Assembly: GCF_001655775.1 (NCBI RefSeq)
Contig: NZ_LXFF01000030.1
Span: 3,130-67,129, forward strand
Source: Candidatus Arthromitus sp. SFB-turkey
GTDB lineage: Bacteria; Bacillota; Clostridia; Clostridiales; Clostridiaceae
DNA: 64,000 nt
Direction: 5' to 3'
Shown here: positions 18,253-63,998 of the stretch, piece after piece
How the letters are laid out: every line of letters starts with the position of its first letter
Numbering within the stretch: position 1 is the first letter of the stretch
Position numbers and translations under genes: made by a program
Notes under the pieces: model-generated
Seen by the model: the letters and a program-made list of their open reading frames with translations, nothing else
The model's database searches: none
What the model was told of the DNA's origin: nothing

Positions 18253-18660
18253 ATGAAAAATAGTAATCTTCAAAATGTACTTGGTAATTCTATTGATGTA
18301 AAATTAACAGATAATATAACAAGAAATTACTCTGAAATAAGAGCTGATATACCAGTTAGCCAATACAGATCAATTCGTCTTTGGGGACAGGTAAGAGATT
18401 CTGCTGGAAACCCAATTCCATATGCTTTACTAAAATTAGTTAAATCTACAAATGGAAATGATTACTGCGGAATTGCACACACAACAGCAGACTGTCAAGG
18501 ATTTTATCAATTTGATTTATGTCCAGATGATGGTGCTGAATACAAAATACTCGCATCTAAATCAAATGCAGGTGCAGAACTAACAATGCACAACTCAGGA
18601 AACTGTCCTACATCACAAGCATCATATGATCCATGTTCAGATTGTCCTTGCAATGACTAA
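18253..18660 (+). CDS. Small carboxypeptidase-regulatory-like protein with Cys-rich tail
   Basis: The 135-residue protein has a very strong AAGGAGG box. Residues 40-110 form a Cna-B/carboxypeptidase-regulatory-like sandwich: IRLWGQVRDSAGNPIPYALLKLVK, then TTADCQGFYQFDLCPDDGAEYKILASKS. The tail is Cys-rich (CPTSQASYDPCSDCPCND). There is no signal peptide or anchor. Small leaderless proteins of this kind in Clostridia and Bacilli are found in spore coats or exosporium, where cysteines allow cross-linking; that assignment is inference. It is alone on the plus strand between two terminators. Cross-links could also form within the fold, since C-G and D-C pairs are spaced as in disulfide sandwiches. 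Confidence 0.75.
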   Translation: MKNSNLQNVLGNSIDVKLTDNITRNYSEIRADIPVSQYRSIRLWGQVRDSAGNPIPYALLKLVKSTNGNDYCGIAHTTADCQGFYQFDLCPDDGAEYKILASKSNAGAELTMHNSGNCPTSQASYDPCSDCPCND

Positions 18661-18666
18661 AAAATT

Positions 18667-18693
18667 AAAGAGACTTTATATAAAGTCTCTTTT
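18667..18693. terminator. Bidirectional terminator
   Basis: The stem AAGAGACTTTA with TAAAGTCTCTT and flanking A/T runs separates the Cys-rich protein gene (+) and the exported 552-aa gene (-). Confidence 0.85.
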
Positions 18694-20352
18694 TTATTTA
18701 CTCAATCCAGATAACGTCTTACTCATACTTGAAACACCACTTACAACTGGTGCTGCATATCTACTATACAACTTAGCTGCCTTTCTAAGTTTTGATGCAA
18801 CTTCTGAAACTAAATTTTCATATTTTATAACATCTCCTAACCATAGCACCCCTGCTTTAGACTTAGTTACCCCTCTCCAAATACCATCATCTAATTGATA
18901 TGCCACTGTTTGAGATTTACCATTAATTTCTATTTCTTCAAGTATAACTCTTTTAGTCTCACCCCATTTATTCTTAGCTTCAACAATATTAATTTTTCTA
19001 TATATTGATGCTTGCTCTCTAGATAAAATATAAGCAAACATATTTCCTCCTTTTTCTAAAACATTACGATACTCTCCATCTTTTTCTAAAACTGCAAATT
19101 TTTCTTCTCCTGTATCACTTATATATTTATATACAGGTTTCTCAATTACTTCCTTAATTCCTTCTGTTTCAAAATATCCTGTTTTATAAAAAGTATATAT
19201 AGTATTACCTTGATAAGATCTTTCAATTTTTTCACCATTATTCCTAAGTTTAATACTAGTTATGTCACCAAATTCATTCATATATATTGACAACTGATTT
19301 TCTCCGTCTCCATTAAACCTATAAATATCTTCAACTCCAGTAATTTCAACATCTCCACTATAATCTCTTACCGCATCGAGTAATATTTTTTTATTTGAAC
19401 CCTTAGTTTTAAAAACTTTATCTATTAACTCTTGACTATCTGTCTGAGGATTAAGATCTATTTTTTCTACAATTGAAGCAGATTTCTTATAATAAATAAC
19501 ATCATGATATCGCTTATCTAACCTAGAACCTTTATTATAAACCATAACAGATTTTAACTCATTATCATTTGATAAAAACGCTTGCATTAAATTACCTTTT
19601 TCCCCAGTAAATACAAAAATTTTTTCCAATCCATCCCCCTGAATATCGGCATCATATTTATCTAGTGCCTCAAACAAAATTTCGTGATTCAACCCTTTGG
19701 TCTTATGAACTAAATCTATTAATTCTTGACTATCCTCTTGAACTTTATAAGATTGTTTCAAAGGAACTTTTTTCCTTACAGCAGGGTCACCTCCAGCAGA
19801 TGACTCCGGCACACCAGTTTTTATAGTACTAGTTTTAGGAAGTGTTTGTTCTCCATCATTAAATATATAATTCCCTCTAGTTTTATTAAAATCAATTTTC
19901 CTACCACTAATTTTTAATTGAACTTTATGAATTTCACCTGTATTGCCATCCATATTAACCTTAACTTTAAAATCATTTCCTTCACTCCTATGAGTATAAA
20001 TTTTTTCTCCAGTTTGAGTGTTTCTCTTATATTTATCCGGTTCATATTTTAACAAATCAACAATAGGTTGCATAGGTATTTTCCTATCACTAATACTTAC
20101 TTGATTTTCCAAACTACTCAACAAACTATTCCTTTTACCTAATTCCTTAGGAGAATCCCACTTAACGCTAGTAATATTACTTAATCTACCTGACTTTCCT
20201 GAAGTCTTAGATGAAGAACCAAATATAGATGTCAATGACTTCTTTCCGAACATAGCTTTAGACTCATGACTTTGTAAAAATAATATTGATGCTCCAGACA
20301 ATAATGAAACTACTGCAGACTTTTTAAAATTCATATTTTTTTTATTTCTCAT
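18694..20352 (-). CDS. Exported repeat protein of unrecognised family (larger of a pair)
   Basis: The start is set at the ATG at 20352, with GAGGTT nine bases upstream (20362-20367); it gives a signal peptide (KKSAVVSLLSGASILFLQ, ending near SKA). The 552-residue product has a Ser/Gly/Lys-rich N-terminal region. It then has three beta-rich units, two of which are clearly tandem repeats opening DSQELIDLVHKTKG (about residue 228) and DSQELIDKVFKTKG (about 316). Each continues NHEILFEALDKY... IFVFTGEKGN or NKKILLDAVRDY... IYRFNGDGEN. The C-terminus is helical with YAAPVVSGVSSMSK. The upstream 235-aa protein shares a shortened unit (INHGVLQTAIDKLGN... VFVLSGDSGS) and the ending NYAAPVVSS. I do not recognise the family; secretion and partnership are inferred. 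Confidence 0.72.
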   Translation of the reverse strand: MRNKKNMNFKKSAVVSLLSGASILFLQSHESKAMFGKKSLTSIFGSSSKTSGKSGRLSNITSVKWDSPKELGKRNSLLSSLENQVSISDRKIPMQPIVDLLKYEPDKYKRNTQTGEKIYTHRSEGNDFKVKVNMDGNTGEIHKVQLKISGRKIDFNKTRGNYIFNDGEQTLPKTSTIKTGVPESSAGGDPAVRKKVPLKQSYKVQEDSQELIDLVHKTKGLNHEILFEALDKYDADIQGDGLEKIFVFTGEKGNLMQAFLSNDNELKSVMVYNKGSRLDKRYHDVIYYKKSASIVEKIDLNPQTDSQELIDKVFKTKGSNKKILLDAVRDYSGDVEITGVEDIYRFNGDGENQLSIYMNEFGDITSIKLRNNGEKIERSYQGNTIYTFYKTGYFETEGIKEVIEKPVYKYISDTGEEKFAVLEKDGEYRNVLEKGGNMFAYILSREQASIYRKINIVEAKNKWGETKRVILEEIEINGKSQTVAYQLDDGIWRGVTKSKAGVLWLGDVIKYENLVSEVASKLRKAAKLYSRYAAPVVSGVSSMSKTLSGLSK

Positions 20353-20374
20353 ATATATCTTAACCTCATAAATT

Positions 20375-21082
20375 TCAATCAATAACTTTAGCTTTAATAC
20401 TTGAAACAACAGGTGCCGCGTAATTAAAAACTTCTTGCTTCAATTCACTAACTTTATTTTTTAAATCAATTGAAATAGAATTTTCATCTATTTGATGTCC
20501 CAAATAATATTTAGTATTATTTCTACCACCAACTGGTAATACGTCACGTAAAATACCATTTCCAACATCAACAGCCACAGACCCACTGTCTCCACTTAAA
20601 ACAAAAACAACTCTTTCATTACCCAACTTATCAATAGCTGTCTGTAAAACACCATGATTTATTCTGTCAAAAATTTTCATTTCTGGAACAGACAACGTCT
20701 TTGAATAACTACCATTTCCTAAGTTTGTAACTAAAATTTCTTCATCGCCTTCTTCAACCTTTGTAAAATTAATAGTTAATCCTTCAGAATTTTTGCGAGT
20801 ATAAATTGGCAACCTTACACTTTTACCGCCTGGCACTTGAAATTCACCTATTTTATGAGCAACATTACCAAAATCTCCATTACTGAGATTTAAAGGATTC
20901 AAATTTTTTGATGAATTTTTTAAAGCCATTCTTTTAACCACATAACTACTATATGTACTCACACCTGATGTTACAGTTTTCTTAATAACCGCACTTGCAC
21001 CATATTTACTTCCCAAAATTAAAGCAGAACCTAAACAAGCTGAAAATGTTAACATTTTTTTATCAAAAACACTTTTCAACAT
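20375..21082 (-). CDS. Exported protein of unrecognised family (smaller of a pair)
   Basis: The 235-residue product starts at the ATG at 21082, whose ribosome site is weak (GGGGA about 13 bases upstream). An alternative ATG follows nine codons later, and an upstream TTG at 21139 is possible. The hydrophobic leader MLTFSACLGSALILGSKYGASA suggests export. The body is beta-rich, with one unit homologous in layout to those of the 552-aa neighbour: INHGVLQTAIDKLGNERVVFVLSGDSGS. The C-terminus, LKNKVSELKQEVFNYAAPVVSSIKAK, parallels that neighbour's ending. The two genes are 22 bases apart and form an operon. No catalytic motif is visible. Confidence 0.68.
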   Translation of the reverse strand: MLKSVFDKKMLTFSACLGSALILGSKYGASAVIKKTVTSGVSTYSSYVVKRMALKNSSKNLNPLNLSNGDFGNVAHKIGEFQVPGGKSVRLPIYTRKNSEGLTINFTKVEEGDEEILVTNLGNGSYSKTLSVPEMKIFDRINHGVLQTAIDKLGNERVVFVLSGDSGSVAVDVGNGILRDVLPVGGRNNTKYYLGHQIDENSISIDLKNKVSELKQEVFNYAAPVVSSIKAKVID

Positions 21083-21407
21083 AATTTCACTAACATCCCC
21101 ACAACATACAAAATATAAATATGTGAATCTTAAATTCAAATATTTTAAAAATTTAAAAATAATTCACATTTAGTTAAAATATCTGAACTATAGTCTAAAT
21201 AAAATAAAATTTTTTGTCAACTTTTTTTAAATTAACCTAAAAAACAAAAAAAGCATGGAAATAAACTCTTAAAAAGTTTAAATACATGCTTAATTCAATT
21301 TAAATATTTACTAAAATTAACTAATAAATCTATATATATAAAATCTATATAAAACTAAATTATAACCTCTTAAATTGTTACGAAACAAAAATGAACACTA
21401 ATTCATT
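21083..21407. other. Intergenic region between arsR and the exported pair
   Basis: This 325-base AT-rich stretch contains one clear hairpin (21251-21292, listed separately) and presumably the promoter of the exported pair in its lower-coordinate half, although I cannot pick a convincing -35/-10. A possible upstream TTG start of the small exported protein lies at 21139. No RNA gene or further coding sequence is apparent. Confidence 0.5.
21251..21292 (-). terminator. Terminator of arsR
   Basis: A two-part hairpin has an outer stem AAGCATG with CATGCTT and an inner stem AAACT with AGTTT. It is followed on the minus strand by T7, about 115 bases past the arsR stop. Confidence 0.7.
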
Positions 21408-21692
21408 TTAATACCCATAATTTTCCTTTAAAACTTCTATTAGTTTCCCTAAATTTTTATCATTTATAGAATATGTAATAGCCAATCCTGATTTATGAGA
21501 AACTAATATCTTATGGGCCTTTAACGTTGATAAATGTTGAGATAGTGCTGATTGGGTTACATGATTAAGCCTACTATGAAGCTCACTTACTGTCATAGGT
21601 CTCTCTAAAAGATAACAAACTATATTTAGTCTATTTTCATTCGATAAAACCCTTAAAATTTCTGCTACTTCTTTAACATTTGCAATCATCAT
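21408..21692 (-). CDS. ArsR/SmtB family transcriptional repressor
   Basis: The 94-residue winged-helix protein has the family opening VKEVAEILRVLSNENRLNIVCYLLERPMTVSELHSRL and the recognition helix TQSALSQHLSTLKAHKILVSHKSG. The metal-box cysteines of ArsR (CVC) are missing and only one Cys is present, so the inducer may be a non-metal signal or a metal bound at another site. No efflux gene is co-transcribed. Two adjacent ATGs (21692, 21689) are possible starts, with AGAGG about 12 bases upstream. A perfect 16-bp palindrome abutting its promoter suggests self-repression. Confidence 0.9.
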   Translation of the reverse strand: MMIANVKEVAEILRVLSNENRLNIVCYLLERPMTVSELHSRLNHVTQSALSQHLSTLKAHKILVSHKSGLAITYSINDKNLGKLIEVLKENYGY

Positions 21693-21948: not shown

Positions 21949-23272
21949 CTTTATTTTTTAAATTATTCCTAAAAATAACAATTATACAAACTAAAAATCC
22001 TAACATCTCTGCAAACGGAAATACAAGCCAAACACCTAAAATATTAAGTTTAGGAACTAAAATTAAAAATCCTAAAATAACAAATACTATTCCAGATGAC
22101 ATAGATATAAGAATTGATTTTTTAGCTTTATTTACAGACTGAAAAAAATATATTGTAACAATATTAAAAGCCATGAACATACATCCTATAAAATAAACTC
22201 TCATTCCATGAGCTGTTATATTTATTAATTCAATATCATCTTTTGTAAAAAGTTTTGATAAATTTTCTGCAAATATATAAACAAAAATATAAGATAAAAT
22301 TCCAAATATAACTGAAGTTGAAAATCCATACACAAATGATTTTTTAGCTCTCTTTAACATGTTTGCACCATAATTTAAACTTACTATAGGCTGAATACTT
22401 TGTGCAATTCCTGAAAATATACAAATTAAAACATATGATACATTTAATAAAATTCCATAAGCTGCAACATAAGTATTTCCACCTAATCTAACTAACACAT
22501 TGTTAAACAAAAATATGGTAATTCCACGACAAAACTCTAGTATAAAAGTTCCAAATCCATTACCTAAAATTTTTTTAATAAGCCTAAAATCAAATCTTAT
22601 TTTACAAAGTTTAAGAGAATTATTTTTTGTTTTAAAATGAATCAAAAGAATTAATATATTTACTATAGGAGACATAACAGTAGCCATAACAGCTCCTCTC
22701 ATGCCTAAATTAAATTCAAATATAAAAATATAATCAAAAATTACATTAACAAGATTAGCAACAATAGTTGCAATCATAGCAAGCTTTGGATTTTTATCAT
22801 TTCTTATAAAACATCCTAAAACTCCAGCAATTAAAAAAGCCCAAGTAAAACCTACAAGAATCGAAAAATATTCACGAAATAAACCCTTTATTTCTTCACT
22901 TGTTCCTAAAAGAACTCCTATTTCATCAACAAATATTACCCCTAAAATAGAAATTATAATTCCTAAAACAAGAGTAAAGACCATAGCATTAGTAAAAATT
23001 TTATTTCCATCTTCACCATTTTTCTCAGATCGATTTATGGAAAGTATATTTGATCCTCCAATACCAATACACAAAAAAAGTGATGTAAATAAAGTAAAAA
23101 GTGGAACTGAAATATTTAGTGCTGCAAGACCATATCTTCCTACTCCAACTCCAACAAACATAGTATCAACAAATATATATAAAGATATTGCAATAGACGA
23201 TAAAACACCTGGAATTAAATATCTAATAAATATTTTTCTTAAGTCATCTCTTAATAAATCAATTTTTTTCAT
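21932..23272 (-). CDS. MATE family efflux transporter
   Basis: The 446-residue protein has twelve hydrophobic segments. Its N-terminal signature is FIRYLIPGVLSSIAISLYIFVDTMFVGVGVGRYGLAALNIS, with SINRSEKNGEDGNKIFTNAM after it and a second half beginning GNGFGTFILEFCRGITIFLFN, typical of MATE (MepA/NorM-like) Na+- or H+-driven exporters. GAGG precedes the ATG by six bases. It lies eight bases after cwlD in the same orientation, so both may be read together. Exported compound unknown. Confidence 0.92.
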   Translation of the reverse strand: MKKIDLLRDDLRKIFIRYLIPGVLSSIAISLYIFVDTMFVGVGVGRYGLAALNISVPLFTLFTSLFLCIGIGGSNILSINRSEKNGEDGNKIFTNAMVFTLVLGIIISILGVIFVDEIGVLLGTSEEIKGLFREYFSILVGFTWAFLIAGVLGCFIRNDKNPKLAMIATIVANLVNVIFDYIFIFEFNLGMRGAVMATVMSPIVNILILLIHFKTKNNSLKLCKIRFDFRLIKKILGNGFGTFILEFCRGITIFLFNNVLVRLGGNTYVAAYGILLNVSYVLICIFSGIAQSIQPIVSLNYGANMLKRAKKSFVYGFSTSVIFGILSYIFVYIFAENLSKLFTKDDIELINITAHGMRVYFIGCMFMAFNIVTIYFFQSVNKAKKSILISMSSGIVFVILGFLILVPKLNILGVWLVFPFAEMLGFLVCIIVIFRNNLKNKEELIV

Positions 23273-23280
23273 ATTAACCT

Positions 23281-23967
23281 CTACTTAATTTCATTAAAAT
23301 AATTTAAAATTCCATTTAATATACAATAAACTATAATATCTTGTCCTTCCTCCGAAATCAAATATTTTTCATCTTCACTATTTGTAATAAAACCTAGCTC
23401 TAATAAAACTCCTGTTATGTTTGTGTATCTTAAAATTCCTAAACTTTTTTCATTAGTCTCTTTAATTCCTCTATCTTTTGTGTATTCAATAGAAGATAAT
23501 TCATCTTGTATGCTTTCAGCTAATAAATAACTTTTATCATCTAAAAATCTACTGTAACTTTCAACTCCTTTTGCACTTTCTACATCTGATCCATTTAAAT
23601 GAATAGATAAAAATATATCTGCATTTCGTGCATTTATAAATTTTGCCCTGTTAATTATATCACTTCTTACAGTATTTCCAAGAGCCTTATCACTTTTCCT
23701 TGTAAAATAAACCTTAAAATTATTTTCCTCAAGTTTTTCTCCTAATTTTAAAGATATATCAAGAACAACGTCTTTCTCATTAACATTATTTTGACTAATA
23801 GCACCAGTATCTTCTCCACCATGACCTGGATCTATAACAATAATTCCACTATAAATCTCTTCATTTATTGAAACAACTTCTCTTTTTTCTTTAGAAATTA
23901 AGAAATTCATAAATATTATTCCCATAACAAATAAACTTAAAAAAATTAATATCTTTAGTATTTTCAT
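23281..23967 (-). CDS. cwlD: N-acetylmuramoyl-L-alanine amidase, CwlD-like
   Basis: This is a zinc amidase of the Amidase_3 family with 228 residues and an N-terminal signal anchor (IFLSLFVMGIIFMNFLI). Zinc ligands appear in IDPGHGGEDTG and in IFLSIHLNGS, a further ligand Glu in NEKDVVLDIS, and the catalytic Glu in GVLLELGFITNSED. Size, single domain and anchor fit CwlD, which makes the muramic-delta-lactam of the spore cortex during sporulation. A vegetative amidase with wall-binding domains is excluded because such domains are absent. The gene supports an endospore-forming host. Confidence 0.88.
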   Translation of the reverse strand: MKILKILIFLSLFVMGIIFMNFLISKEKREVVSINEEIYSGIIVIDPGHGGEDTGAISQNNVNEKDVVLDISLKLGEKLEENNFKVYFTRKSDKALGNTVRSDIINRAKFINARNADIFLSIHLNGSDVESAKGVESYSRFLDDKSYLLAESIQDELSSIEYTKDRGIKETNEKSLGILRYTNITGVLLELGFITNSEDEKYLISEEGQDIIVYCILNGILNYFNEIK

Positions 23968-24034
23968 AAATCACCATTTGTAAAATATATTGATTACCTC
24001 ATAATACTACAAATATACCTTTAAACGCAAAAAT

Positions 24035-24066
24035 AAAATGGAAATTATTTATATAATTTCCATTTT
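24035..24066 (-). terminator. Terminator of the mannitol operon
   Basis: The 13-bp stem AAAATGGAAATTA (24035-24047) with TAATTTCCATTTT (24054-24066) ends at the mtlD stop codon and leads into A/T-rich sequence. Confidence 0.8.
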
Positions 24067-25211
24067 TAAACAATGTCTTTAATTTCATTAAAATATTTTA
24101 CAACTTTATTTAAAATCTCCTCTTCACTAATTCCTGAAATCTCTCTAAAAGCATTTAAAACACCTTTTTCCTTTATTATTTCCTGCATTTTTAAACTACT
24201 ATCATCTTTAGGTGAATTAAATTTTAAAGCACACGCTGCTCCTAAACAAAGTTTTTCAATTTTTTTACCATAATTATAAGCAGTTAAAATAGGTTTTACA
24301 AATCTATCATCTTTAGAAAGTTTTCTCATAGGTTCTCTACCAACTCTTAACACATTATCAATTAAATGTGGATTCTTAAACCTATTAATTATTTTATCAA
24401 TGTAGTTTAAATGACTCTCTCTATTAAAAGAATACTTTTGTATAAGCCCTTCTCCACTTTCAATCATAGCTTCTTTTACATTATCATATATAAATTTATC
24501 ATTTATACTATCATAAATTGTTTCATATCCTTTTAAAAATCCTAAATATGCAGTCATTGTATGACCTGTATTTAATGTAAATAACTTCCTTTCAATATAA
24601 GAAGATAAATTATCAACTAAATTCATTCCATCAATATTTAAATTACCTAATACTTGATCTTTTTGAACATTCCATTCATAAAATTCTTCTACAAAAACAT
24701 CAATTGAATTTACATCACAGGGTGGAACAATCCTATCAACTGAACAATTAGCAAATCCAACAAACTTTTCACAAAATTCTTTTTCACAATCATTTAAATA
24801 TTTTAAAACCTCATTTTTTAATATCTCAGTTGCATTAATCGCATTTTCACAGGCTATTATATTTAAATACTTTTTGTCATTTAATTTAATTTTATTTTTT
24901 ATACCCTCTGCTATACTTTTAGAAATTTTAGGTAAAACAAGAACTCCAACAGCAGTTGTTATAATATCACTTTGAGCTATTTCATTAATTAAATTATTAT
25001 CATCTGCATATATACCCCTTACATTATCTATAATTTCCTCTCTAGATTCACTATCTTTTATAAATAATTTATAACCTTTCTTTTCATTTATTTTATCTAT
25101 AATTTCCCTATTTACATCACAAAACAAAACATTATAAGAAGATTTTCTAAGTACAGCTCCTATAAAGCCTCTTCCTATATTTCCAGCTCCAAACTGAATT
25201 GCATTTTTCAT
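24066..25211 (-). CDS. mtlD: Mannitol-1-phosphate 5-dehydrogenase
   Basis: The NAD-dependent enzyme oxidises mannitol-1-phosphate to fructose-6-phosphate. The 381-residue length is standard. The Rossmann motif FGAGNIGRGFIG occupies residues 6-17. IACENAINAT, VDRIVPP and LNTGHTMTAYLGFLKG, which includes the catalytic Lys region of long-chain polyol dehydrogenases, follow in the expected order. Its ATG lies directly against the stop of mtlR, so translation is coupled. It is the last gene of mtlA-mtlR-mtlD. Confidence 0.97.
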   Translation of the reverse strand: MKNAIQFGAGNIGRGFIGAVLRKSSYNVLFCDVNREIIDKINEKKGYKLFIKDSESREEIIDNVRGIYADDNNLINEIAQSDIITTAVGVLVLPKISKSIAEGIKNKIKLNDKKYLNIIACENAINATEILKNEVLKYLNDCEKEFCEKFVGFANCSVDRIVPPCDVNSIDVFVEEFYEWNVQKDQVLGNLNIDGMNLVDNLSSYIERKLFTLNTGHTMTAYLGFLKGYETIYDSINDKFIYDNVKEAMIESGEGLIQKYSFNRESHLNYIDKIINRFKNPHLIDNVLRVGREPMRKLSKDDRFVKPILTAYNYGKKIEKLCLGAACALKFNSPKDDSSLKMQEIIKEKGVLNAFREISGISEEEILNKVVKYFNEIKDIV

Positions 25212-34489: not shown

Positions 34490-37400
34490 TTAAGAAGGAA
34501 CTCCTGCTGCATCTTGGTCTGACTGTCTCCAGAATATTCCAACTCTTTCACAAAGCTTTCCAAACTCTGGCTCATGAGCCATTCTATCAACAAGAACTTC
34601 TTGAGCTAGCTTCTTATCTCCTTGAGCATTTTGTAAATTTTCATTATAAATTCCTACCCAGAAATTTAAACCTTCCTCATCATATTCTCTATTAACAACT
34701 ATTTGATATAATGCTGCTATAAGCTCTTTATCTTGTAAGTTTCTATTTGTAAATTCATTTTCAGCAAATAATAAATTATTGAGGAAATACTCACCATTTA
34801 AAGTTTTAGGTAATATTCTGTGAGCATACCAATAATTATATCCTTCTTCATCTGGGAATCTTTCAAAAGCGAACCAATAAGCATTACTTAGCCAATCTTG
34901 TGCTGTATCAGCAGGCTGTGTTGTAAATTCTTTTATAGACATTTTAAATGTTGTTCCATCTTTTAAAGGTATTTCAACTTCTATATTTTCATATTTTTTC
35001 TTAGGTATTGTTGGCTCTATTGTAAATCCTGTTCCACTTTCGTTAAATTTAATACTAAATCCTGTAAATGCCTCATCACCCATCACAAGTCCTATAGGTT
35101 GCTCTAAATCTATATCAAGTTCCTCTGCATTAGGTATAGCAATTTCTGCTGCTGTTCCTGTTATTTCGTATTCTGGCTGATCAACTACCACCTCAGAAGA
35201 TGCTGCACCTTTTGTAGTAAATTCAGCTTCAACTGGATCAATTGTTAATCCTTCTTTTGTAATTTGAACTTTAACTATATATTCTGTACTTCCTTCTAAA
35301 CCTGTTAAATCATAAGAAGTAGTACCTGAACCTGTAGAACTAAATGCTGGAGACTCCGGATAATTAGATTCATCTTTCTTTCTTACAAAAACTTCAGTCT
35401 TATCACTATCACCAAAAGTTATATTAGATGGATATTTCCAAATAACTTTTGCTGTATCACTTAATACAGAAGTTTCATCAACTGAAACTGATAAAAATGA
35501 TAATTTAGTTTTCTTAATATATGATAATCCTCCAATATCACAACAAATAGCTACTTCGTAATCCTTTGTTTTATCTTCTACCTTTATTTTTGCATTCTTG
35601 ACATTTGCTATATCTTTACCTGAATGCTCTTCAACAGCTATTTGTTTAATGGCATTAAAATCATCTGGTATAGGAGTACCATCACTTTCTTTAACTCCTA
35701 CAAGAAGTTTATCTGTAAAATCATCATTTTCATCTTTATAAAAGTCTATAGGATTTTCTCCATAATCCCAAGAAATTGTACTACCATCATAATTTATAGA
35801 TTCTAATTTAATATCTGTAATTGGTAATGCTTCTGTAAATAATTCTAATTTTACTGGCTCTACAGTTCCATCCTCTAAATCAAGTGCAACTACAATATCA
35901 TACTTAGCTTCTGGAAGTAAATAACTAAGCTCTATAAGTTTCATATCATCAGCTATACTTAAAGTATCTGACTGAACACCTTCAAACACTAAAAAACCAT
36001 CACTTTGTACATTTCCATCAGAAAACTCATCTTTTGCATAAATAAGAAGTGCATCACCATTAACAAACTCATAGTTTGATGGTGTTTCAACTTCTATTAA
36101 AGCCCTTGTTTCATTAACTGAAAAAACTTTCGCCTTAAGTGGGTCTATGCTATTTTTAAATGTAAGTTCTTTTTCATATTTTTTATCTCCAACAGTATAA
36201 ACAAGCTTCATATTTTGTTCTACTCCAATAGACTCTGCAAGAACATAGTCACTAAAAGTATTTGAAATATTATTCTCCCCATCTGATGTTAATCTATAAG
36301 ATGGTTCTTCTGGATAAGCATCACTACTTGCTAATTTTACAAATATTTCTGCCTTATCAGCTGGATTAAATATCATATTTTCAGGTTCTATTTCCCATTT
36401 AACTAAAATATCATACTCTTCATAACTATCTACTTCAAAGGATTTTATCTCAAATGATTTTGTGGAAATGTCAACTTCTGTTTCTGTTTCATGGCCACCA
36501 CTCATAGTAAATTTAATTTTAGACTTGTATTTTTTCTCTGGAGTAAGTCCCGATACATCAACACGAGTCACTTCATTTAAATTATACTTTCCTTCTTCTA
36601 TACCATGAACTAAAGTTAATAATGGATTAGTATATCCCAATCCGTCAGGTTGAGTTTCTGCATTACTCTGACCATCTTCCTTAAGTTCTTTAATAAATAT
36701 ATCAACTTTATCCCCTTTTTGAAGTTCATATCCTGGTGGATATTCCCAACCATAAGTAGCTGTCGTTTGATTAGACGTAAATACCGTTGCTTTAAATACA
36801 TCCGATACTGTTTTAAATCTAAACTCTGCTTCTTTTTTTGCATTAGTATCAGTCGATAAGGTTGTATCTGCTACATATTTAACTTTAATTGAATAGTCTG
36901 ATCCAACTTTTAAATTCTTTAAATCCAATTTCTTAAAATCTTTTATATTACCTTCTTCTTCTTTATGTTGACTATGAATTTGATCTGCTGAACGTACAAA
37001 AACTTCATTTTCTTGTTCTTCATAAGAACGACTTAAAGAAGATTGTTTTAATGTGTATATCTTAGTAAACTCTGTTAAAGCATCATCTGGATCAGAAGAT
37101 TTTTTATTATCATTACGTTTTAAATATATCTCTACTTTTTCATCTTGTACGGCACTATCTAACTTACCCGATGGTGTGAAATCCCAATTTAGCTTTGCTG
37201 TATTAGCTTTAATATCAGATACATTTATATCTGTAATTTGAAAATCGGTTGTTGCTTTAAAACTCCCATTAGCATTTCCCACTATTTTACCACTATTTTC
37301 AAATTTAACAACTACATTACAAATATCATTTTGAGAAACATTGCTATTTATATCATAAGTTGCATTCTTATCACTTATAATCATATCAATATCGTTAATC

Positions 37401-40213
37401 ACATTAGATTTTTCTAACTCTTTATTAACAGTTATTTTAACCTTATCAGTATCTTTTTTCTTATATCCTGATGGCAAATTACAAGTTACAGTAGCTCCTG
37501 CTATAGTTATATTACTAATATTAAGACTAATATCTCCTCTAGCTTCAATTAAAACATGCTCCTCTATTTTTTTACCTCTAAGATTATACTCAACCTTCGC
37601 TGTATAAGGAGTATTATACTTTGGAAGATTTATAATACATTGTTTGGTTGGAGTAAATATTTGTGTATCGTCATTTCTTTGTATAGAATTTTTAGCACTA
37701 TAAGGTTGTATAGTAACTGTTTCTGGATTTTGAGGATAATCTGATGTATTACTCTCTTTTAAATAAACCTTTATATTTTCATCTTCTCCACCTTCTCCAA
37801 AATTTGGAGTACCATTTGTTCCCCATGTAAGTTTTATTTGTCTACTATCTTCAGTTTGTTGTTCTGCTTTTAAATTTTCAATAGTAAATGCACCTGTTTG
37901 AAAATTATAAAATTCTTCTACAAATTTCCATGTACCATCAAATCCACCCTTTTGTAATATGTGTCTCACACGAACTCTATAATGTTGACCAACTTCAAGT
38001 CCCGTTAAATCAAACTCTTTTTTAGTTAATAAATCTCCCATATTTTCACCACTTGAACCATGTTCAAACCATAATACTCTATTACTTTCTACAAATCCAC
38101 CTGTTGTCCTGTCATTTAATGAATTAATTTTCTTTAAATTTACTTCAATAACTTGACCATTCTCAGGTTCATACTTCTTAGTTCCACTATGATCTCTATC
38201 ATACTCCCACTTAACTTTAGCAGTAGTTTGAGTTATATCTGTAACTTCTAATTTAGGTTTATTAACTTTAGCATTAACTGTACGTCTATTATAAGCAACC
38301 TCTCCCTGTTCTCCACTCTTTTTACTAGTTATTACTTTTTTTCCACCTATTGTATAAATCAAATCAACATGAAAATTCACCATCCAGCTGGGAATACTCA
38401 CAGTTGCACTTTTAATAGAATTTAAATTTTCTGTCTTAATAAACAGAGGATTAGTATATTTATCTGTTTTAGGATAACCAGAAAATTCACTTGAAGTATT
38501 AGGCTTTACAAAAATTTCTAACTTATCACCAGATGAAAATTCCATATTACTAGGCTCAAAATCCCATTGAATAGTAATTGTTCTACTTCTTGGATAAACC
38601 AACCTAAAATTATCATTTCCAACATTTGCATCTTTAATTTCTATTGGTCCAGTTAATACAAATGTTTTAGTTGTAAAATTTGTAAAACTTATTACCGAAC
38701 CCCTTTGGTTATTCAAAATAATTTTAGCTTCATAATTTGTACCCGGTGCAAGACCTGTTAATAGAGTAGATGTTGTCTTATTTAAATCAACTTTACCACT
38801 ACCAGTACCATGAACTAACGCAGCATCTGGTATAGCTGAATAACTTTTACTATTTTGCTTATCTCTTAAATATATTTCAACCTTATGTCCTGACTCTGGA
38901 GTATATCCAGTAGGATAAATCCAATTTATTTTTACAGAAGTCTCTTTAACTTCTGTACCAGATGTACTCATTGTAACATGTAAAAAAGGTGTACTTATGG
39001 TATTAGAACCATTAGTTAATTCAACTAAATAATTTTTACTTGTTGAGAGAGAAACTCCATTATTTAAATTAACAACATTATTATTTGAAGCTGTTAACCC
39101 TCCAACCTTCTCTCCAATTTTAGTACCTTTTGAAAAATTATCACCTAACTCATAAACATAAATCTTATTATTTGTAGATTGTATGGATAAAAATTTATCC
39201 AAAGTTGATAAATCAAAATTTAAACTTGAATCACCTGATAAATCAGCTTTACATCCTAATTTTTCAATTTTAGATAGAGAACAAAAACTAAACATAGATT
39301 CCCTAATTCTCTCTCTATCTTGAGATTCAACTCTTATATGATAATCACGATTAAAACTCATCTCAACATTTTCAAATTTATAAACATTATTTCCTTCATG
39401 AACTCCTTCATTATGTCTATTTCCTCCTGCATATAACCTTAAAGTATCTCCATTTGATAATCCCATATTAATCTTAAGTTTTATATTAAATAAATTATTT
39501 CCTTTTGACTCACCTGAAACTAATTCCACATTTAAATTTTTAGCCCACTTACCACTATAATAAAACTTACTAAGGTATTCTCTTCCAGCAACTCTAGCTC
39601 TAACAACATATCCCCTAGTATCGAGAGAAGACTTTTTATTTTCAAATACTATTTTGTTTGATTTAGCATATTTTATAGTCTTAGTAACCTTTTCTATAGC
39701 AACACTTCCACTAGTTAATAAAATATCAACATCAATATCTAAATCCTCAGGAAATTTTGCAGCCCAAGTCTTTAAATCGCACTCTATATTATTTCCTGAA
39801 ATAGCCATAGTTGGTTTGAAACTTATATCATAATCATTATAAACAAAAGTAGATACCAACTTTCTTACATCTCCACCTATATTAGCTTTAATATTTAGCT
39901 GATAAGTAGTTCCATTTATTAATACTTCTCTAGTACGCCAAGATTTTTTACTAGAATCACTTGCTTGTATTTCAATCCCAGTATTTCCTTTCAATAAACT
40001 TAATTCTTCTATACTGTCACCTTCGGATAAATATTTAGAAAAATCAAATACAATATAATTATCAATTACCTTAACATCATAAATTATAGTTTTTATAGAA
40101 CTTATCTCTGCAGCCTTAACTTCCTTAGGCTTTATACCGAAATTTAAGACTAGAAAATTAAAAATGAAAACAAAGCTCAATAATCTAGCTAAATTTTTAA
40201 ATTTATCAAACAA
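34490..40213 (-). CDS. Giant secreted protein with Fn3-like repeats and C-terminal DUF4214 region
   Basis: The product is about 1907 residues. The start is placed at a TTG at 40213, eight bases after AAGGAGG; the upstream ATG at 40237 has no ribosome site and would place that box inside the coding sequence. A signal peptide follows (FDKFKNLARLLSFVFIFNFLV, cut near VKA-AE). After an N-terminal beta domain of about 400 residues come about 11 Fn3-like units of 100-130 residues, each with an opening like TAKVKWEY, TITIQWDF or TATYGWEYPPG and a nearby GDKVEIFVK strand. The last 130 residues (WLSNAYWFAFERFPDEEGYNYWY and LYQIVVNREYDEEGLNFWV) form a DUF4214 region, found in other secreted or surface proteins. 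No LPXTG or membrane anchor is present, so DUF4214 may serve in attachment. Adhesion to host or cell surface is a reasonable but unproven role. Confidence 0.85.
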   Translation of the reverse strand: MFDKFKNLARLLSFVFIFNFLVLNFGIKPKEVKAAEISSIKTIIYDVKVIDNYIVFDFSKYLSEGDSIEELSLLKGNTGIEIQASDSSKKSWRTREVLINGTTYQLNIKANIGGDVRKLVSTFVYNDYDISFKPTMAISGNNIECDLKTWAAKFPEDLDIDVDILLTSGSVAIEKVTKTIKYAKSNKIVFENKKSSLDTRGYVVRARVAGREYLSKFYYSGKWAKNLNVELVSGESKGNNLFNIKLKINMGLSNGDTLRLYAGGNRHNEGVHEGNNVYKFENVEMSFNRDYHIRVESQDRERIRESMFSFCSLSKIEKLGCKADLSGDSSLNFDLSTLDKFLSIQSTNNKIYVYELGDNFSKGTKIGEKVGGLTASNNNVVNLNNGVSLSTSKNYLVELTNGSNTISTPFLHVTMSTSGTEVKETSVKINWIYPTGYTPESGHKVEIYLRDKQNSKSYSAIPDAALVHGTGSGKVDLNKTTSTLLTGLAPGTNYEAKIILNNQRGSVISFTNFTTKTFVLTGPIEIKDANVGNDNFRLVYPRSRTITIQWDFEPSNMEFSSGDKLEIFVKPNTSSEFSGYPKTDKYTNPLFIKTENLNSIKSATVSIPSWMVNFHVDLIYTIGGKKVITSKKSGEQGEVAYNRRTVNAKVNKPKLEVTDITQTTAKVKWEYDRDHSGTKKYEPENGQVIEVNLKKINSLNDRTTGGFVESNRVLWFEHGSSGENMGDLLTKKEFDLTGLEVGQHYRVRVRHILQKGGFDGTWKFVEEFYNFQTGAFTIENLKAEQQTEDSRQIKLTWGTNGTPNFGEGGEDENIKVYLKESNTSDYPQNPETVTIQPYSAKNSIQRNDDTQIFTPTKQCIINLPKYNTPYTAKVEYNLRGKKIEEHVLIEARGDISLNISNITIAGATVTCNLPSGYKKKDTDKVKITVNKELEKSNVINDIDMIISDKNATYDINSNVSQNDICNVVVKFENSGKIVGNANGSFKATTDFQITDINVSDIKANTAKLNWDFTPSGKLDSAVQDEKVEIYLKRNDNKKSSDPDDALTEFTKIYTLKQSSLSRSYEEQENEVFVRSADQIHSQHKEEEGNIKDFKKLDLKNLKVGSDYSIKVKYVADTTLSTDTNAKKEAEFRFKTVSDVFKATVFTSNQTTATYGWEYPPGYELQKGDKVDIFIKELKEDGQSNAETQPDGLGYTNPLLTLVHGIEEGKYNLNEVTRVDVSGLTPEKKYKSKIKFTMSGGHETETEVDISTKSFEIKSFEVDSYEEYDILVKWEIEPENMIFNPADKAEIFVKLASSDAYPEEPSYRLTSDGENNISNTFSDYVLAESIGVEQNMKLVYTVGDKKYEKELTFKNSIDPLKAKVFSVNETRALIEVETPSNYEFVNGDALLIYAKDEFSDGNVQSDGFLVFEGVQSDTLSIADDMKLIELSYLLPEAKYDIVVALDLEDGTVEPVKLELFTEALPITDIKLESINYDGSTISWDYGENPIDFYKDENDDFTDKLLVGVKESDGTPIPDDFNAIKQIAVEEHSGKDIANVKNAKIKVEDKTKDYEVAICCDIGGLSYIKKTKLSFLSVSVDETSVLSDTAKVIWKYPSNITFGDSDKTEVFVRKKDESNYPESPAFSSTGSGTTSYDLTGLEGSTEYIVKVQITKEGLTIDPVEAEFTTKGAASSEVVVDQPEYEITGTAAEIAIPNAEELDIDLEQPIGLVMGDEAFTGFSIKFNESGTGFTIEPTIPKKKYENIEVEIPLKDGTTFKMSIKEFTTQPADTAQDWLSNAYWFAFERFPDEEGYNYWYAHRILPKTLNGEYFLNNLLFAENEFTNRNLQDKELIAALYQIVVNREYDEEGLNFWVGIYNENLQNAQGDKKLAQEVLVDRMAHEPEFGKLCERVGIFWRQSDQDAAGVPS

Positions 40214-40684
40214 ATTTTTCTCCTCCTTTTTCCCCATTTTTGATAAATTTTCTTAAAAATCTTATCCGAACAAATCCCCCAATCATGTTAAATATATAAC
40301 TACTCCTTAAGCTTTAAACAATTACGAAACATAACTTTTTATTGTTATGTAAAATTAAATTTTTTTAAATTTCTGGGTCAACAGTTATTAGTATTGTTGT
40401 TTTTATTTCTTTTATTCATGATTAATTAATATTTATAATCCTTTATTAATTAAAAAAAAATAAAAAGTTCAATTATTAAAATTGAACTTTGAAAGGTCTA
40501 TGAAATTGTAAAATTATACTAATTTATAAAAATTGAATTTTTTCAAATTAATATTAAACTTACGCTTTTTTAAACTATTATGTATTAATAAAACAACTCT
40601 ATATAATCAATTAAATAATAAAATAAACTCATACTCATATAGTTAGAAATTTTTAAAGTTCATTAATAATTTTAGGAGGATTTC
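40214..40684. other. Long AT-rich intergenic region with orphan hairpins
   Basis: This 471-base region upstream of the giant gene (-) and the flavoprotein gene (+) must hold both promoters. It contains a 26-codon open frame (40206-40286, minus) that overlaps the TTG start of the giant gene. It also has a small hairpin ACATAAC/GTTATGT (40329-40350) and a terminator-like hairpin at 40464-40490 that ends no known gene. Ribosome boxes AAGGAG (minus, near 40305) and AGGAGGA (plus, 40674-40680) are visible. No convincing protein or structured RNA beyond these. Confidence 0.5.
40464..40490 (-). terminator. Orphan minus-strand terminator
   Basis: The perfect stem AAAGTTCAATT (40464-40474) with AATTGAACTTT (40480-40490) is followed on the minus strand by a T-run (TTTATTTTTTTTT). 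No minus-strand gene ends here: the next feature above it is a plus-strand gene. Confidence 0.6.
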
Positions 40685-60515: not shown

Positions 60516-60543
60516 AAGAACTCTGATAATATCAAAGTCCTTT
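60516..60543 (-). terminator. Terminator of the beta-galactosidase gene
   Basis: On the minus strand AAGGACTTTGATA pairs with TATCAGAGTTCTT (two G-U pairs) and is followed by a T-run. It overlaps the last bases of the gene. Confidence 0.8.
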
Positions 60544-63500
60544 CAAAAAATTCTTTTCCAAATATTCATTGGAGAATCATGATTGTTTATTGCACTTATT
60601 GTAAATGAAAATGCATATTTACAATCCCCTTCTATATAATCAATTACCTTATCGTCAAATGTTTCAAATGTACTCCCATAATCTTTTGATCTTAAATTAA
60701 CTATTGTTGAAGAAAATTCTTTCATCTGATATTTATGGTTTTTTTCAAATTCACCATCATTGTACTTAGATACATTGACCTGTAAAAATTCATTGCTTAC
60801 ATTTGTAAATAGTATTCCATTATTTCCATTTTTCTTATAAAAACGCGCCCATCTAACATCTGTTAAATTTCCAGTTCTTTGAGGTCTTACATAATCTGTA
60901 AATTGTCTATCTACATCAGATTTGTATACTCCAATTTTACTACCTTCTTTTCTGTCATTATAATTTTCAAAAGGTCCTCTACCATAAAATTCCATTTCAC
61001 AATAATCTTTAGGTATAAAAACTTTAAAACCAACTGATCTTGCATGTGGAATTCCATGACTTAACAAATCAACAAACAAATTAACATTTACATCTCCATA
61101 CTGATTTACTTTATAAGTAGTTATAAGCTCTGAATTATTAAGATTATATAATGTTTTATAAAATTTCAAAATTATATCCTGTTCACTTTTATATAATTCA
61201 TATCTATTATAACTATTGTCTTTAAAAATATCTTTCCAAAACTTAATATCATTATAAATCTTAAAAAGTCTTTCATTATCATTTAAAGGATTCCAAAAAT
61301 CTACTAAAATTGGAGAACTTAAAAGTTTTTCTCCTCTATAAACGTATTTTTTCAAACTTCCTTTATTTTTATCAAATTCCATTTCAAATTCATCTGATAT
61401 TAAAAATATATTTGAAACATCTTCTTTAACATTAAAATTTTGATATTCTCTATTTAAAGAATTTGCCTCTACAATAAAAGCTTCTAGTGGTATCTTAAAT
61501 TGTTCTGAAGCTATTTCAAAACCTTTATTCGCCCAAAAATTTCCCTCTTTTAAAACAAATTTTAAGTTTATAAAAAACTCTTTACCATTTAAAGATAAAA
61601 TTTTGTGAAAATCAGTTATTTTAAAAACTTCACTGCTCATGGGATCTAAATTAATAACAGCTGAATCTCCTTCTATAACTTCTCCATCAACTAAATAATC
61701 CCATTTTAAAATATAATTATTTAAATTTACAAATAAATTTTTGTTTTTTATGATTATTTCACCATTTAAAATATCTTTATCATAAATGTCTATATTTTGA
61801 TAAACATGTTTTATTTCATGTACCTGAGGTTTTAACTTTCTAGTACTAAGTAAAATTCCATTTGCACAAAAAGCTGAATCATTAGGAGAATCATTAAAAT
61901 CTCCCCCAAAAGCTAAATATTTTTCATCTTTATACTTATTAAATTCTAAAATTTCTTCTTTTCTATCAAAATCAATCCAAAGTAATTTACCAAAATTTTT
62001 ATCATAAACCTTTAATTTATCTATTTGATCAAAATCTATTTTTTTCGAAAAAAACTTTATTTCATCTAAAACCCCATTCATTCCTTCACAATGAATTTCA
62101 CTATTATTTCCTCCAATTTGTACACTATCTCCAAAATACCCAACTCCATAAACAAATTCTTTCTCTCCAACTAAATTTCCATTTAAAAACAATTTAATTA
62201 ATCTACCATCATAAGATGCCGTTATTCTTTGCCAATTATCCACCCAATTTTCAGGTACAATAAACACAATAGATTCTACCATTTGAGAATTATCTCTAAT
62301 AAAAAATTCAACAACTCTATTATTTGAATTTCTATAATTTGTTACCTCTTGAATTCCAAATTCATACCCTTTTTTAAAATAAATACATCCTTCTCCCTCA
62401 TATACACTTGGTTTAACTTTTAAATCTATTGTAAATTCATTTAGCTTTACGTATTTAAGCTCATCATAAAAAATTACTCCACTATATCCTTTTCCTCTAT
62501 ATCCTTCTTTTACATATCCTTCAAATTTTCCATCAAATAACATTAAAGAATTATTTAAAATTCCAACTTTAGGAGAATCTTTATATATACCTTGATCTAT
62601 AAAATCCCATATAAATCCTCCTTGAACATTATCTATACTTTCAAACTTTTCTATGTATTTATTTAAACTTCCTCCACTATTTCCCATTGAATGAGCATAC
62701 TCACATAAAATATAAGGTTTATTTTTCATATATCTACTTTGTTTTTCAATATCTTCAATTTTTACATACATTTTGCTTACAATATCGCTTGCATAATATT
62801 CATCTCTCTCTCCTTCATAGTGTACAAGTCTAGTTTTATCTCTTTCTTTAACGTAATCATATATATACTTAAATACACTTCCTCCACCACTTTCATTTCC
62901 AAGGGACCATATTAAAACACATGGGTTATTTTTATCTCTCTCAATAAGACTCATTACTCTATCTAAACATGGAGCTTTCCAAATTTCGTTATTTCCTGGA
63001 ATTTCTCCTTCAACACCATGAGCTTCAATATTTGCTTCATCAATTAAATACACACCATACTCATTACACAAACTAACAAAATAATTATGATTAGGATAAT
63101 GAGATGTTCTAACTGCATTAATATTATTCTTTTTTATTTCTTTAATATCAAATTCCATGTCTGATATAGAAATTGCTCTACCTTTTAAAGGATGAGTTTC
63201 ATGTCTATTTACTCCCTTAAATAAAATAGGCTTACCATTTAAATGCATTTGGTTTCCTTTTAACTCAAATTTTCTAAATCCAATTCTAGTATGTATTGCT
63301 TGAGTTTCTCCATATAAATCATTTTTAAGAACAACAACTAAATTATATAAATTTGGATCTTCTGAGGACCATTTTTTAGGATTTTCAATATCCATAACAC
63401 TATTAAAATTACATTGCATAATTTTATCTTTGTATGTATAGTAATTATCAAAATTTCCAAGTCCTTCTTCTTTAGAAATTAAATTCCAATCATTATCAAA

Positions 63501-63998
63501 AAGAAGAATTGATATAAAAAATTCTTTATTTTGATTTAAATGGTTTAACAAATTAAAATTTACAATTAACTTAGAATTTAAATAATATTCATCTAAATCA
63601 GTTATAACTTCAAAGTCTCTTATATGTATTTGTGGAGTTCTATACAAAAAAACATCTCTAAATATTCCACTTAATCTTATAAAATCTTGATCTTCAATAA
63701 AACTTCCATCACTCCATCTAAACACTTGAACAGAAACTGAATTTTTTCCACTCATAACAAAATCAGTTATATCAAATTCACTAGGTGAAAAACTATCTTC
63801 ACTATATCCCACAAATTTTCCATTTACCCATAAATAAAAACACGATTCAACCCCTTGAAAAGATATATATATTTTATCTCCAATCCAAGATTCATCTAAA
63901 TCAAATATTTTTTTATAACTTCCAACAGGATTAAATATTTCAGGAGCTTTATAAAATTCAAGATTTTCATATCCAGTCCAAGGATATCTAAAATTTAC
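60543..63998 (-). CDS. lacZ: Beta-galactosidase (GH2) with internal LamG-like domain, 5' end outside window
   Basis: The frame is open past the window edge; the GTG at 63812 is internal, since PWTGYENLEFYKAPEIFNPVGSY and WIGDKIYISFQGVESCFYLWVNGKFVGYSEDSF continue the GH2 sugar-binding domain upstream of it. The TIM barrel has the acid/base Glu in IWSLGNESGGG (codon 62892-62894) and the nucleophile Glu in ILCEYAHSMGN (codon 62700-62702). After GGFIWDFIDQGIYKD about 220 residues are inserted, a LamG/concanavalin-like sandwich (FTIDLKVKPSVYEGEG, WQRITASYDGRLIKLFLNGNLVG, MNGVLDEIKFFSKKI). The normal GGDFNDSPNDSAFCANGIL then resumes. A GH2 C-terminal lactase domain ends the protein (GRGPFENYNDRKEGSKIGVYK). 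No secretion signal can be judged. It probably hydrolyses beta-galactosides; the insert may bind carbohydrate. Confidence 0.94.
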   Translation of the reverse strand, partial: VNFRYPWTGYENLEFYKAPEIFNPVGSYKKIFDLDESWIGDKIYISFQGVESCFYLWVNGKFVGYSEDSFSPSEFDITDFVMSGKNSVSVQVFRWSDGSFIEDQDFIRLSGIFRDVFLYRTPQIHIRDFEVITDLDEYYLNSKLIVNFNLLNHLNQNKEFFISILLFDNDWNLISKEEGLGNFDNYYTYKDKIMQCNFNSVMDIENPKKWSSEDPNLYNLVVVLKNDLYGETQAIHTRIGFRKFELKGNQMHLNGKPILFKGVNRHETHPLKGRAISISDMEFDIKEIKKNNINAVRTSHYPNHNYFVSLCNEYGVYLIDEANIEAHGVEGEIPGNNEIWKAPCLDRVMSLIERDKNNPCVLIWSLGNESGGGSVFKYIYDYVKERDKTRLVHYEGERDEYYASDIVSKMYVKIEDIEKQSRYMKNKPYILCEYAHSMGNSGGSLNKYIEKFESIDNVQGGFIWDFIDQGIYKDSPKVGILNNSLMLFDGKFEGYVKEGYRGKGYSGVIFYDELKYVKLNEFTIDLKVKPSVYEGEGCIYFKKGYEFGIQEVTNYRNSNNRVVEFFIRDNSQMVESIVFIVPENWVDNWQRITASYDGRLIKLFLNGNLVGEKEFVYGVGYFGDSVQIGGNNSEIHCEGMNGVLDEIKFFSKKIDFDQIDKLKVYDKNFGKLLWIDFDRKEEILEFNKYKDEKYLAFGGDFNDSPNDSAFCANGILLSTRKLKPQVHEIKHVYQNIDIYDKDILNGEIIIKNKNLFVNLNNYILKWDYLVDGEVIEGDSAVINLDPMSSEVFKITDFHKILSLNGKEFFINLKFVLKEGNFWANKGFEIASEQFKIPLEAFIVEANSLNREYQNFNVKEDVSNIFLISDEFEMEFDKNKGSLKKYVYRGEKLLSSPILVDFWNPLNDNERLFKIYNDIKFWKDIFKDNSYNRYELYKSEQDIILKFYKTLYNLNNSELITTYKVNQYGDVNVNLFVDLLSHGIPHARSVGFKVFIPKDYCEMEFYGRGPFENYNDRKEGSKIGVYKSDVDRQFTDYVRPQRTGNLTDVRWARFYKKNGNNGILFTNVSNEFLQVNVSKYNDGEFEKNHKYQMKEFSSTIVNLRSKDYGSTFETFDDKVIDYIEGDCKYAFSFTISAINNHDSPMNIWKRIF

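What the first reader, a model, noticed from the sequence alone, without database searches (positions are those of the whole stretch)
18694..21082. Unrecognised pair of exported proteins built from shared repeat units
Two adjacent genes encode proteins with leaders, related beta-rich units (NHGVLQTAIDKLGN / NHEILFEALDKY / NKKILLDAVRDY followed by an IFVFTGEKGN-type hairpin) and nearly the same C-terminal end (YAAPVVSS / YAAPVVSG). They look like a lineage-specific secreted family that grew by repeat duplication. No known domain explains them. They lie next to a Cys-rich small protein and an ArsR gene.
Basis: partly seen in the sequence, partly recalled or inferred. Interest (0 to 1): 0.68.

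Follow-up and report, generated by a model that had tools for sequence, protein, structure and literature searches.

The report
Lineage-specific secreted repeat proteins of SFB
In the turkey strain of segmented filamentous bacteria, gut commensals that cling to the intestinal lining, two neighbouring genes make fast-changing exported proteins of a family not described before; such proteins are plausible players in how these bacteria meet their host, but no function has been shown.

Summary
The window is from turkey segmented filamentous bacteria (SFB; Candidatus Arthromitus UMNCA01; identical genome size, and PMC6979296). The two genes are real and probably form an operon: P0001 (18694-20352, 552 aa) and P0002 (20375-21082, 235 aa), both with Sec-type leaders. 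P0002's NHGVLQ... motif is not such a unit: the shared feature is a ~155-aa C-terminal domain ending in YAAPVVS. No Pfam, NCBIfam, PHROG, PADLOC or PDB sequence family matches. One unit folds confidently as two helices plus a six-strand meander, with only weak resemblance to known folds (OspA, LolB, BLIP-like). Relatives occur only in one other SFB genome (G002), at the same locus, where the genes have multiplied into promoter-plus-leader cassettes; rat SFB lacks them at this site and elsewhere. They are 40-44% identical between genomes while adjoining genes are 68-97%. Best reading: a lineage-specific, rapidly diverging exported protein family facing host or environment. That kind is already documented for SFB, so this is a new member of a known kind. 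Function is inferred, not shown.

The parts
18694..20352 (-). P0001: 552-aa exported protein (leader, unit A, linker, two B units, C-terminal domain)
   Evidence: ORF and translation; partner in G002 49% identical over residues 124-551
20254..20352 (-). P0001 leader, ~33 aa, ending ...SHESKA; no lipobox
   Evidence: hydropathy; no Cys in P0001
19855..20130 (-).
   Evidence: leave-one-out HMM E=3.9e-9
19474..19734 (-). Unit B1 (u2), ~87 aa, contains NHEILFEALDKY
   Evidence: u2-u3 Z=23.8
19171..19440 (-). Unit B2 (u3), contains NKKILLDAVRDY; predicted two helices plus six-strand meander
   Evidence: AlphaFold2 pLDDT 85, pTM 0.77 with nine units
18697..19194 (-). C-terminal domain of P0001, with YAAPVVS at residue 532
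   Evidence: homologous to P0002; pLDDT mostly 72-85 in the full model
20375..21082 (-). P0002: 235-aa exported protein made of leader, short linker and the same C-terminal domain
   Evidence: counterpart in G002 at the same place, 40% identical
20990..21082 (-). P0002 leader, ~31 aa, ending YGASA
   Evidence: start codon context conserved in G002
20378..20848 (-). C-terminal domain of P0002, with YAAPVVS at residue 221; includes NHGVLQTAIDKLGN
21192..21220 (-). Promoter-like site (TTGACA-17-TAGACT) upstream of P0002; the TTGACA box is kept upstream of P0002 in G002 and of two of the three G002 cassettes (TTGACG in the third)
18667..18692 (.). Bidirectional intrinsic terminator between P0001 and the small Cys protein; similar copies at corresponding 3' ends in G002
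18253..18660 (+). Context: small Cys-containing protein, sub-threshold CarboxypepD_reg-like match, no leader; also present in rat SFB
21408..21692 (-). Context: ArsR-type regulator, 97% and 93% identical to G002 and rat SFB

Best explanation
P0002 and P0001 are an operon-encoded pair of Sec-exported proteins of an SFB-specific family. Each has a cleavable leader and a shared ~155-aa C-terminal domain; P0001 adds an N-terminal array of three small units (two helices followed by an antiparallel meander). Both mature proteins are basic (pI about 9.1), lack sortase, lipoprotein and DUF4214 anchors, and so would be released or held on the wall by charge or by the C-terminal domain. The units would form an extended, variable face that binds something outside the cell, most likely at the host-facing surface; the C-terminal domain would serve as the common attachment or assembly module. 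Shown by computation: gene structure, units, shared domain, synteny, absence from rat SFB, fast divergence, cassette duplication in G002. Inferred: export, surface association, binding. Not shown: any ligand or role.
For: Leaders in both proteins and in all G002 relatives. 22-bp gap between the genes on one strand, promoter-like TTGACA box upstream of P0002 conserved in G002, terminator after P0001. Reciprocal HMM tests link unit types A and B above real-protein decoys; hhalign A/B collinear over 75 columns, E=2.8e-4. Unit model pLDDT 85. Turkey-G002 identity 40-44% for the pair against 68-97% for nine adjoining genes, as expected for outward-facing SFB proteins (PMC7474095: exported hypotheticals average 52% against 65-71% proteome-wide). 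G002 carries three further copies whose promoter and leader are 68-83% identical in DNA while the mature parts diverge. Mature pI 9.1.
Against: No experimental evidence of export, surface location or binding. Signal peptides judged by hydropathy, not by a trained predictor. Only two genomes carry the family, so absence from rat SFB could be loss rather than gain in the other lineage. The G002 P0001 counterpart has an in-frame TAA and one paralog a frame break, which may be assembly error or decay. The host of G002 is unknown.
Confidence: 0.5

Rival explanations
1. Structural envelope components: the proteins are building blocks of a surface coat (S-layer, the hair-like layer of filaments, or tip structures), the units stacking into elongated subunits and the C-terminal domain assembling them.
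For: Extended meander units and similarity of P0001 to the elongated OspA sheet; SFB coats exist with unknown composition (PMC12780176).
Against: The coats are conserved in mouse and rat SFB (PMC12780176), yet rat SFB has no member of this family; a main coat protein should not be lineage-restricted.
Confidence: 0.2
2. Inhibitor or antagonism proteins: the two-helix plus sheet units act like BLIP-type domains that block a secreted enzyme of competitors or host.
For: Weak structural similarity of the unit to BLIP-like and DUF2874 proteins (4fr9 Z 4.1, 4ipb Z 4.8); tandem small units.
Against: Z values within background; no sequence match; no associated enzyme or immunity gene.
Confidence: 0.1
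3. Decaying or weakly selected orphan genes without a present role.
For: Stop codon and frame break in G002 copies; low identity.
Against: Both turkey genes are intact over 552 and 235 codons; -35 box, start context, terminator and domain order are kept in both genomes; multiplication in G002.
Confidence: 0.1
4. Diverged members of a known small-domain family such as PepSY.
For: Helix-then-sheet order; DUF2874 entries among structural rows at Z 4-5.
Against: No unit of ten matches PepSY or any Pfam model even at E<=1 beyond scattered chance hits.
Confidence: 0.05

Closest known systems
Rapidly evolving exported hypothetical proteins of SFB (60 predicted in human SFB, PMC7474095)
   Same: Signal peptide, no recognised domain, unusually low identity between hosts, basic pI without obvious anchor
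   Different: This family is defined here: repeat units, shared C-terminal domain, a syntenic expansion locus absent from rat SFB
SFB Th17 antigen P3340 (mouse) and its human counterpart
   Same: According to PMC7474095, conserved leader and C-terminal part with a variable middle: a loosely similar layout
   Different: P3340 sequence not compared here; [quoted passage not shown] this family has no member in rat SFB
Borrelia OspA (structure)
   Same: Meander strands of a unit superpose on the OspA central sheet (58 residues, rmsd 1.9, Z 6.0)
   Different: No sequence similarity, no lipobox, helices not matched; Z tied with LolB and inside background
DUF4214 surface proteins of SFB
   Same: Same organisms, exported
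   Different: No DUF4214 in either protein, though the turkey genome has 50 matches

Membership tests
PepSY (Pfam) domain proteins | Profile match to the PepSY model | tested here: not met
   No match for P0001 or P0002 (max E 10) or for ten units (max E 1)
Borrelia OspA-like outer surface lipoproteins | Sequence homology | tested here: not met
   Unit and C-domain profiles against all PDB chains: no OspA
Borrelia OspA-like outer surface lipoproteins | Single-layer central beta-sheet fold | tested here: inconclusive
   Foldseek E 2.5e-5 for full model but TM 0.11; VIA Z 7.1 and 6.0, under the Z 8 guide
Borrelia OspA-like outer surface lipoproteins | Lipoprotein signal (lipobox cysteine) | tested here: not met
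   P0001 has no Cys; no lipobox in either
BLIP-like domain proteins | Fold match to BLIP-like structures | tested here: inconclusive
   4fr9 Z 4.1, rmsd 4.3 over 68
Sortase-anchored (LPXTG) surface proteins | C-terminal LPXTG with hydrophobic tail | tested here: not met
   Only LPKTS at residue 171 of P0001, internal
SFB DUF4214 surface proteins | DUF4214 domain | tested here: not met
   No Pfam match in P0001/P0002; 50 matches elsewhere in the genome
SFB proteins with the published conserved C-terminal motif (P3340 group) | The conserved C-terminal motif | not tested
   Motif cited but not spelled out in the main text of PMC7474095; supplement not available
Exported proteins (Sec) | Cleavable signal peptide | tested here: inconclusive
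   Basic n-region and hydrophobic core seen by hydropathy in all members; no trained predictor available

The most novel reading that the evidence does not exclude
The family is a host-contact system of one SFB lineage: the C-terminal domain docks on the cell surface or tip and the diversifying units bind a host-specific receptor or mucus component, so that this locus, absent from rat SFB, helps set host specificity.
Probability: 0.1. Interest if true: 0.75.

Novelty: new member of a known kind. Interest (0 to 1): 0.4.

Why it matters
The components with which SFB attach to the gut lining are not identified (PMC7474095), and SFB are strongly host-specific. A lineage-restricted, fast-diverging exported family at one defined locus, with a clean absence in rat SFB and cassette multiplication in a relative, gives a short list of testable candidates. 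If it turns out to be one more anchorless secreted protein with no host role, it remains a new protein family and a new small domain, of moderate interest.

Tried and rejected
PepSY and other known domains: none. Phage or plasmid-borne origin: no match in phage records or IMG/VR for the C domain; the unit alignment was too variable to scan; plasmids not searched. Weak unit matches in Clostridium (E 1e-4 to 1e-2): the ~530-aa ones that I read lie in related proteins with repeated beta-propeller-like stretches, another in an unrelated 222-aa protein; none has a leader-plus-unit layout; taken as chance. Units and C domain as one homologous module: rejected for lack of profile signal. OspA as relative: similarity of sheet geometry only. 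Genome-contig scan with P0001 found nothing; a scan with NadE gave the named G002 contig JAGHEJ010000051. The host of MAG.106 could not be found in papers. No SFB paper searched here mentions this locus, although supplements could not be opened. The C-terminal domain was not folded alone, so its fold was barely tested.

Full report
Identity of the window. The window lies in a 1,631,326-bp, 41-contig genome. That is exactly the published turkey SFB genome Candidatus Arthromitus UMNCA01 (PMC6979296; table in PMC9482736). Of the two other genomes in the genus, G001 has a single contig of 1,515,556 bp, the size listed for SFB-rat-Yit (PMC9482736). G002 contains contig JAGHEJ010000051, 'Clostridiales bacterium isolate MAG.106'; its host is unknown.

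The observation. Two minus-strand genes occupy exactly the stated coordinates: P0002, 235 aa, and P0001, 552 aa, 22 bp apart. Both begin with a basic stretch and a hydrophobic core typical of Sec leaders; neither has a later hydrophobic span of membrane-anchor strength, a lipobox, or a C-terminal LPXTG. A promoter-like site lies upstream of P0002 and a bidirectional terminator after P0001.

What is shared. BLASTP aligns P0002 residues 76-229 with P0001 residues 389-540 at E=8e-7; the score lies 12.6 SD above shuffles. With the G002 counterparts this C-terminal domain has 18 invariant columns. Inside P0001, u2 and u3 are clear repeats (Z=23.8). The motif NHGVLQTAIDKLGN of P0002 is part of the C-terminal domain: it resembles u2 only weakly (p=0.007), u3 not at all, and profile comparison finds no homology between the C domain and either unit type (the only hit to type B is a 12-column overlap at the boundary).

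A third unit and two unit types. A more divergent unit, u1, lies at 19855-20130. Together with units in G002 proteins it forms type A; u2/u3 are type B. Leaving out each type A unit in turn, the rest recover it first among about 1450 real proteins with E from 1.6e-8 to 2.3e-12. Type B profiles find three type A units above all unrelated decoys (E about 0.02-0.03; next unrelated decoy 0.97; one higher 'decoy' was a fragment of the family itself), and a profile of the G002 paralogs finds u1 at 1.4e-6. hhalign aligns the two types over 75 columns (E=2.8e-4, probability 41%). The A-B link is therefore likely but weaker than the links within types.

Structure. The full-length model is poor overall (pLDDT 60), but the C domain is mostly at 72-85 and parts of u3 at about 80-90. 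A u3 model built on nine units has pLDDT 85 and pTM 0.77: two helices followed by a six-strand meander. Foldseek finds nothing below E=0.001 for the unit. VIA-align gives OspA Z 6.0 (58 residues, rmsd 1.9), LolB 5.6, and BLIP-like entries about 4-5. These are within background. The full model's Foldseek hits to OspA (E 2.5e-5, TM 0.11) reflect similar meander strands; no sequence relation was found. The C domain was not searched on its own.

Distribution. In 207 Clostridiaceae genomes the only convincing unit and C-domain matches are turkey SFB and G002. In a draw of 398 Bacillota genomes only the window's own genome matches. Phage records and IMG/VR give nothing. The rat SFB genome has no match anywhere, and at the syntenic site its arsR is followed directly by the small Cys protein gene and nadE. 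Whether this is gain in one lineage or loss in the other cannot be decided from three genomes. Mouse, chicken and human SFB genomes were not held here.

G002. The order arsR, P0002, P0001, extra paralogs, small Cys protein, nadE is kept. The P0001 counterpart is split between two contigs that overlap in a 33-bp tandem repeat, which I take as one gene; it has an in-frame TAA. Three more genes follow at 790-800 bp spacing. Their promoter, ribosome-binding region and leader are 68-83% identical in DNA, while the mature parts differ strongly. The TTGACA box is shared by P0002 of both genomes and two of the three cassettes. This is expansion by duplication of promoter-leader-unit cassettes.

Rate. 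Between turkey SFB and G002 the pair is 40% and 44% identical, against 68-97% for nine adjoining genes. PMC7474095 reports the same tendency for SFB exported hypothetical proteins in general and points out basic, anchorless ones that may re-associate with the surface; both mature proteins here have pI about 9.1.

Mechanism. Shown by computation: gene structure, domain layout, distribution, divergence. Inferred: export, retention at the surface by the common C-terminal domain or by charge, and an outward binding role for the units. The turkey genome has 50 DUF4214 matches, the domain thought to anchor SFB surface proteins (PMC12780176); these two proteins have none, so another mode of attachment, or release, must apply. 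I give the outward-facing binding reading 0.5; a coat component, an inhibitor and a decaying locus are less likely.

Verdict. A real, undescribed, lineage-restricted exported protein family with a small domain not in the family libraries; a new member of a known kind (fast-evolving SFB exported proteins).

Noticed in passing
window ~23250-25211 against L011 1-1950: The mtlD-like and amidase genes are about 95% identical in DNA (one dip to 81% around the gap between them) between turkey SFB and G002, falling to 66-89% from the MATE gene onward: a likely recent recombination between SFB lineages ending one gene from arsR.
   Followed up: partly
34490-40237 (-): 1915-aa protein with an fn3 domain and DUF4214, typical of SFB surface proteins.
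   Followed up: no
60543-63812 (-): Beta-galactosidase (GH2) with a Laminin_G_3 lectin-like domain matched between the catalytic and C-terminal parts.
   Followed up: no
L013 13780-14398; L011 4782-5000: One G002 paralog appears frame-broken and the G002 P0001 counterpart has an in-frame TAA; assembly error or decay cannot be told apart.
   Followed up: partly
18253-18660 (+), L061 10287-10961: Small Cys-containing protein with sub-threshold CarboxypepD_reg similarity, no leader; only 38% identical to the rat SFB copy, which is longer and richer in Cys.
   Followed up: no
L013 16719-16831 and end of L011: 33-bp tandem repeat (11 aa, VKTGGKRHFIN) inside the G002 P0001 gene that broke the assembly; could vary in copy number.
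   Followed up: partly
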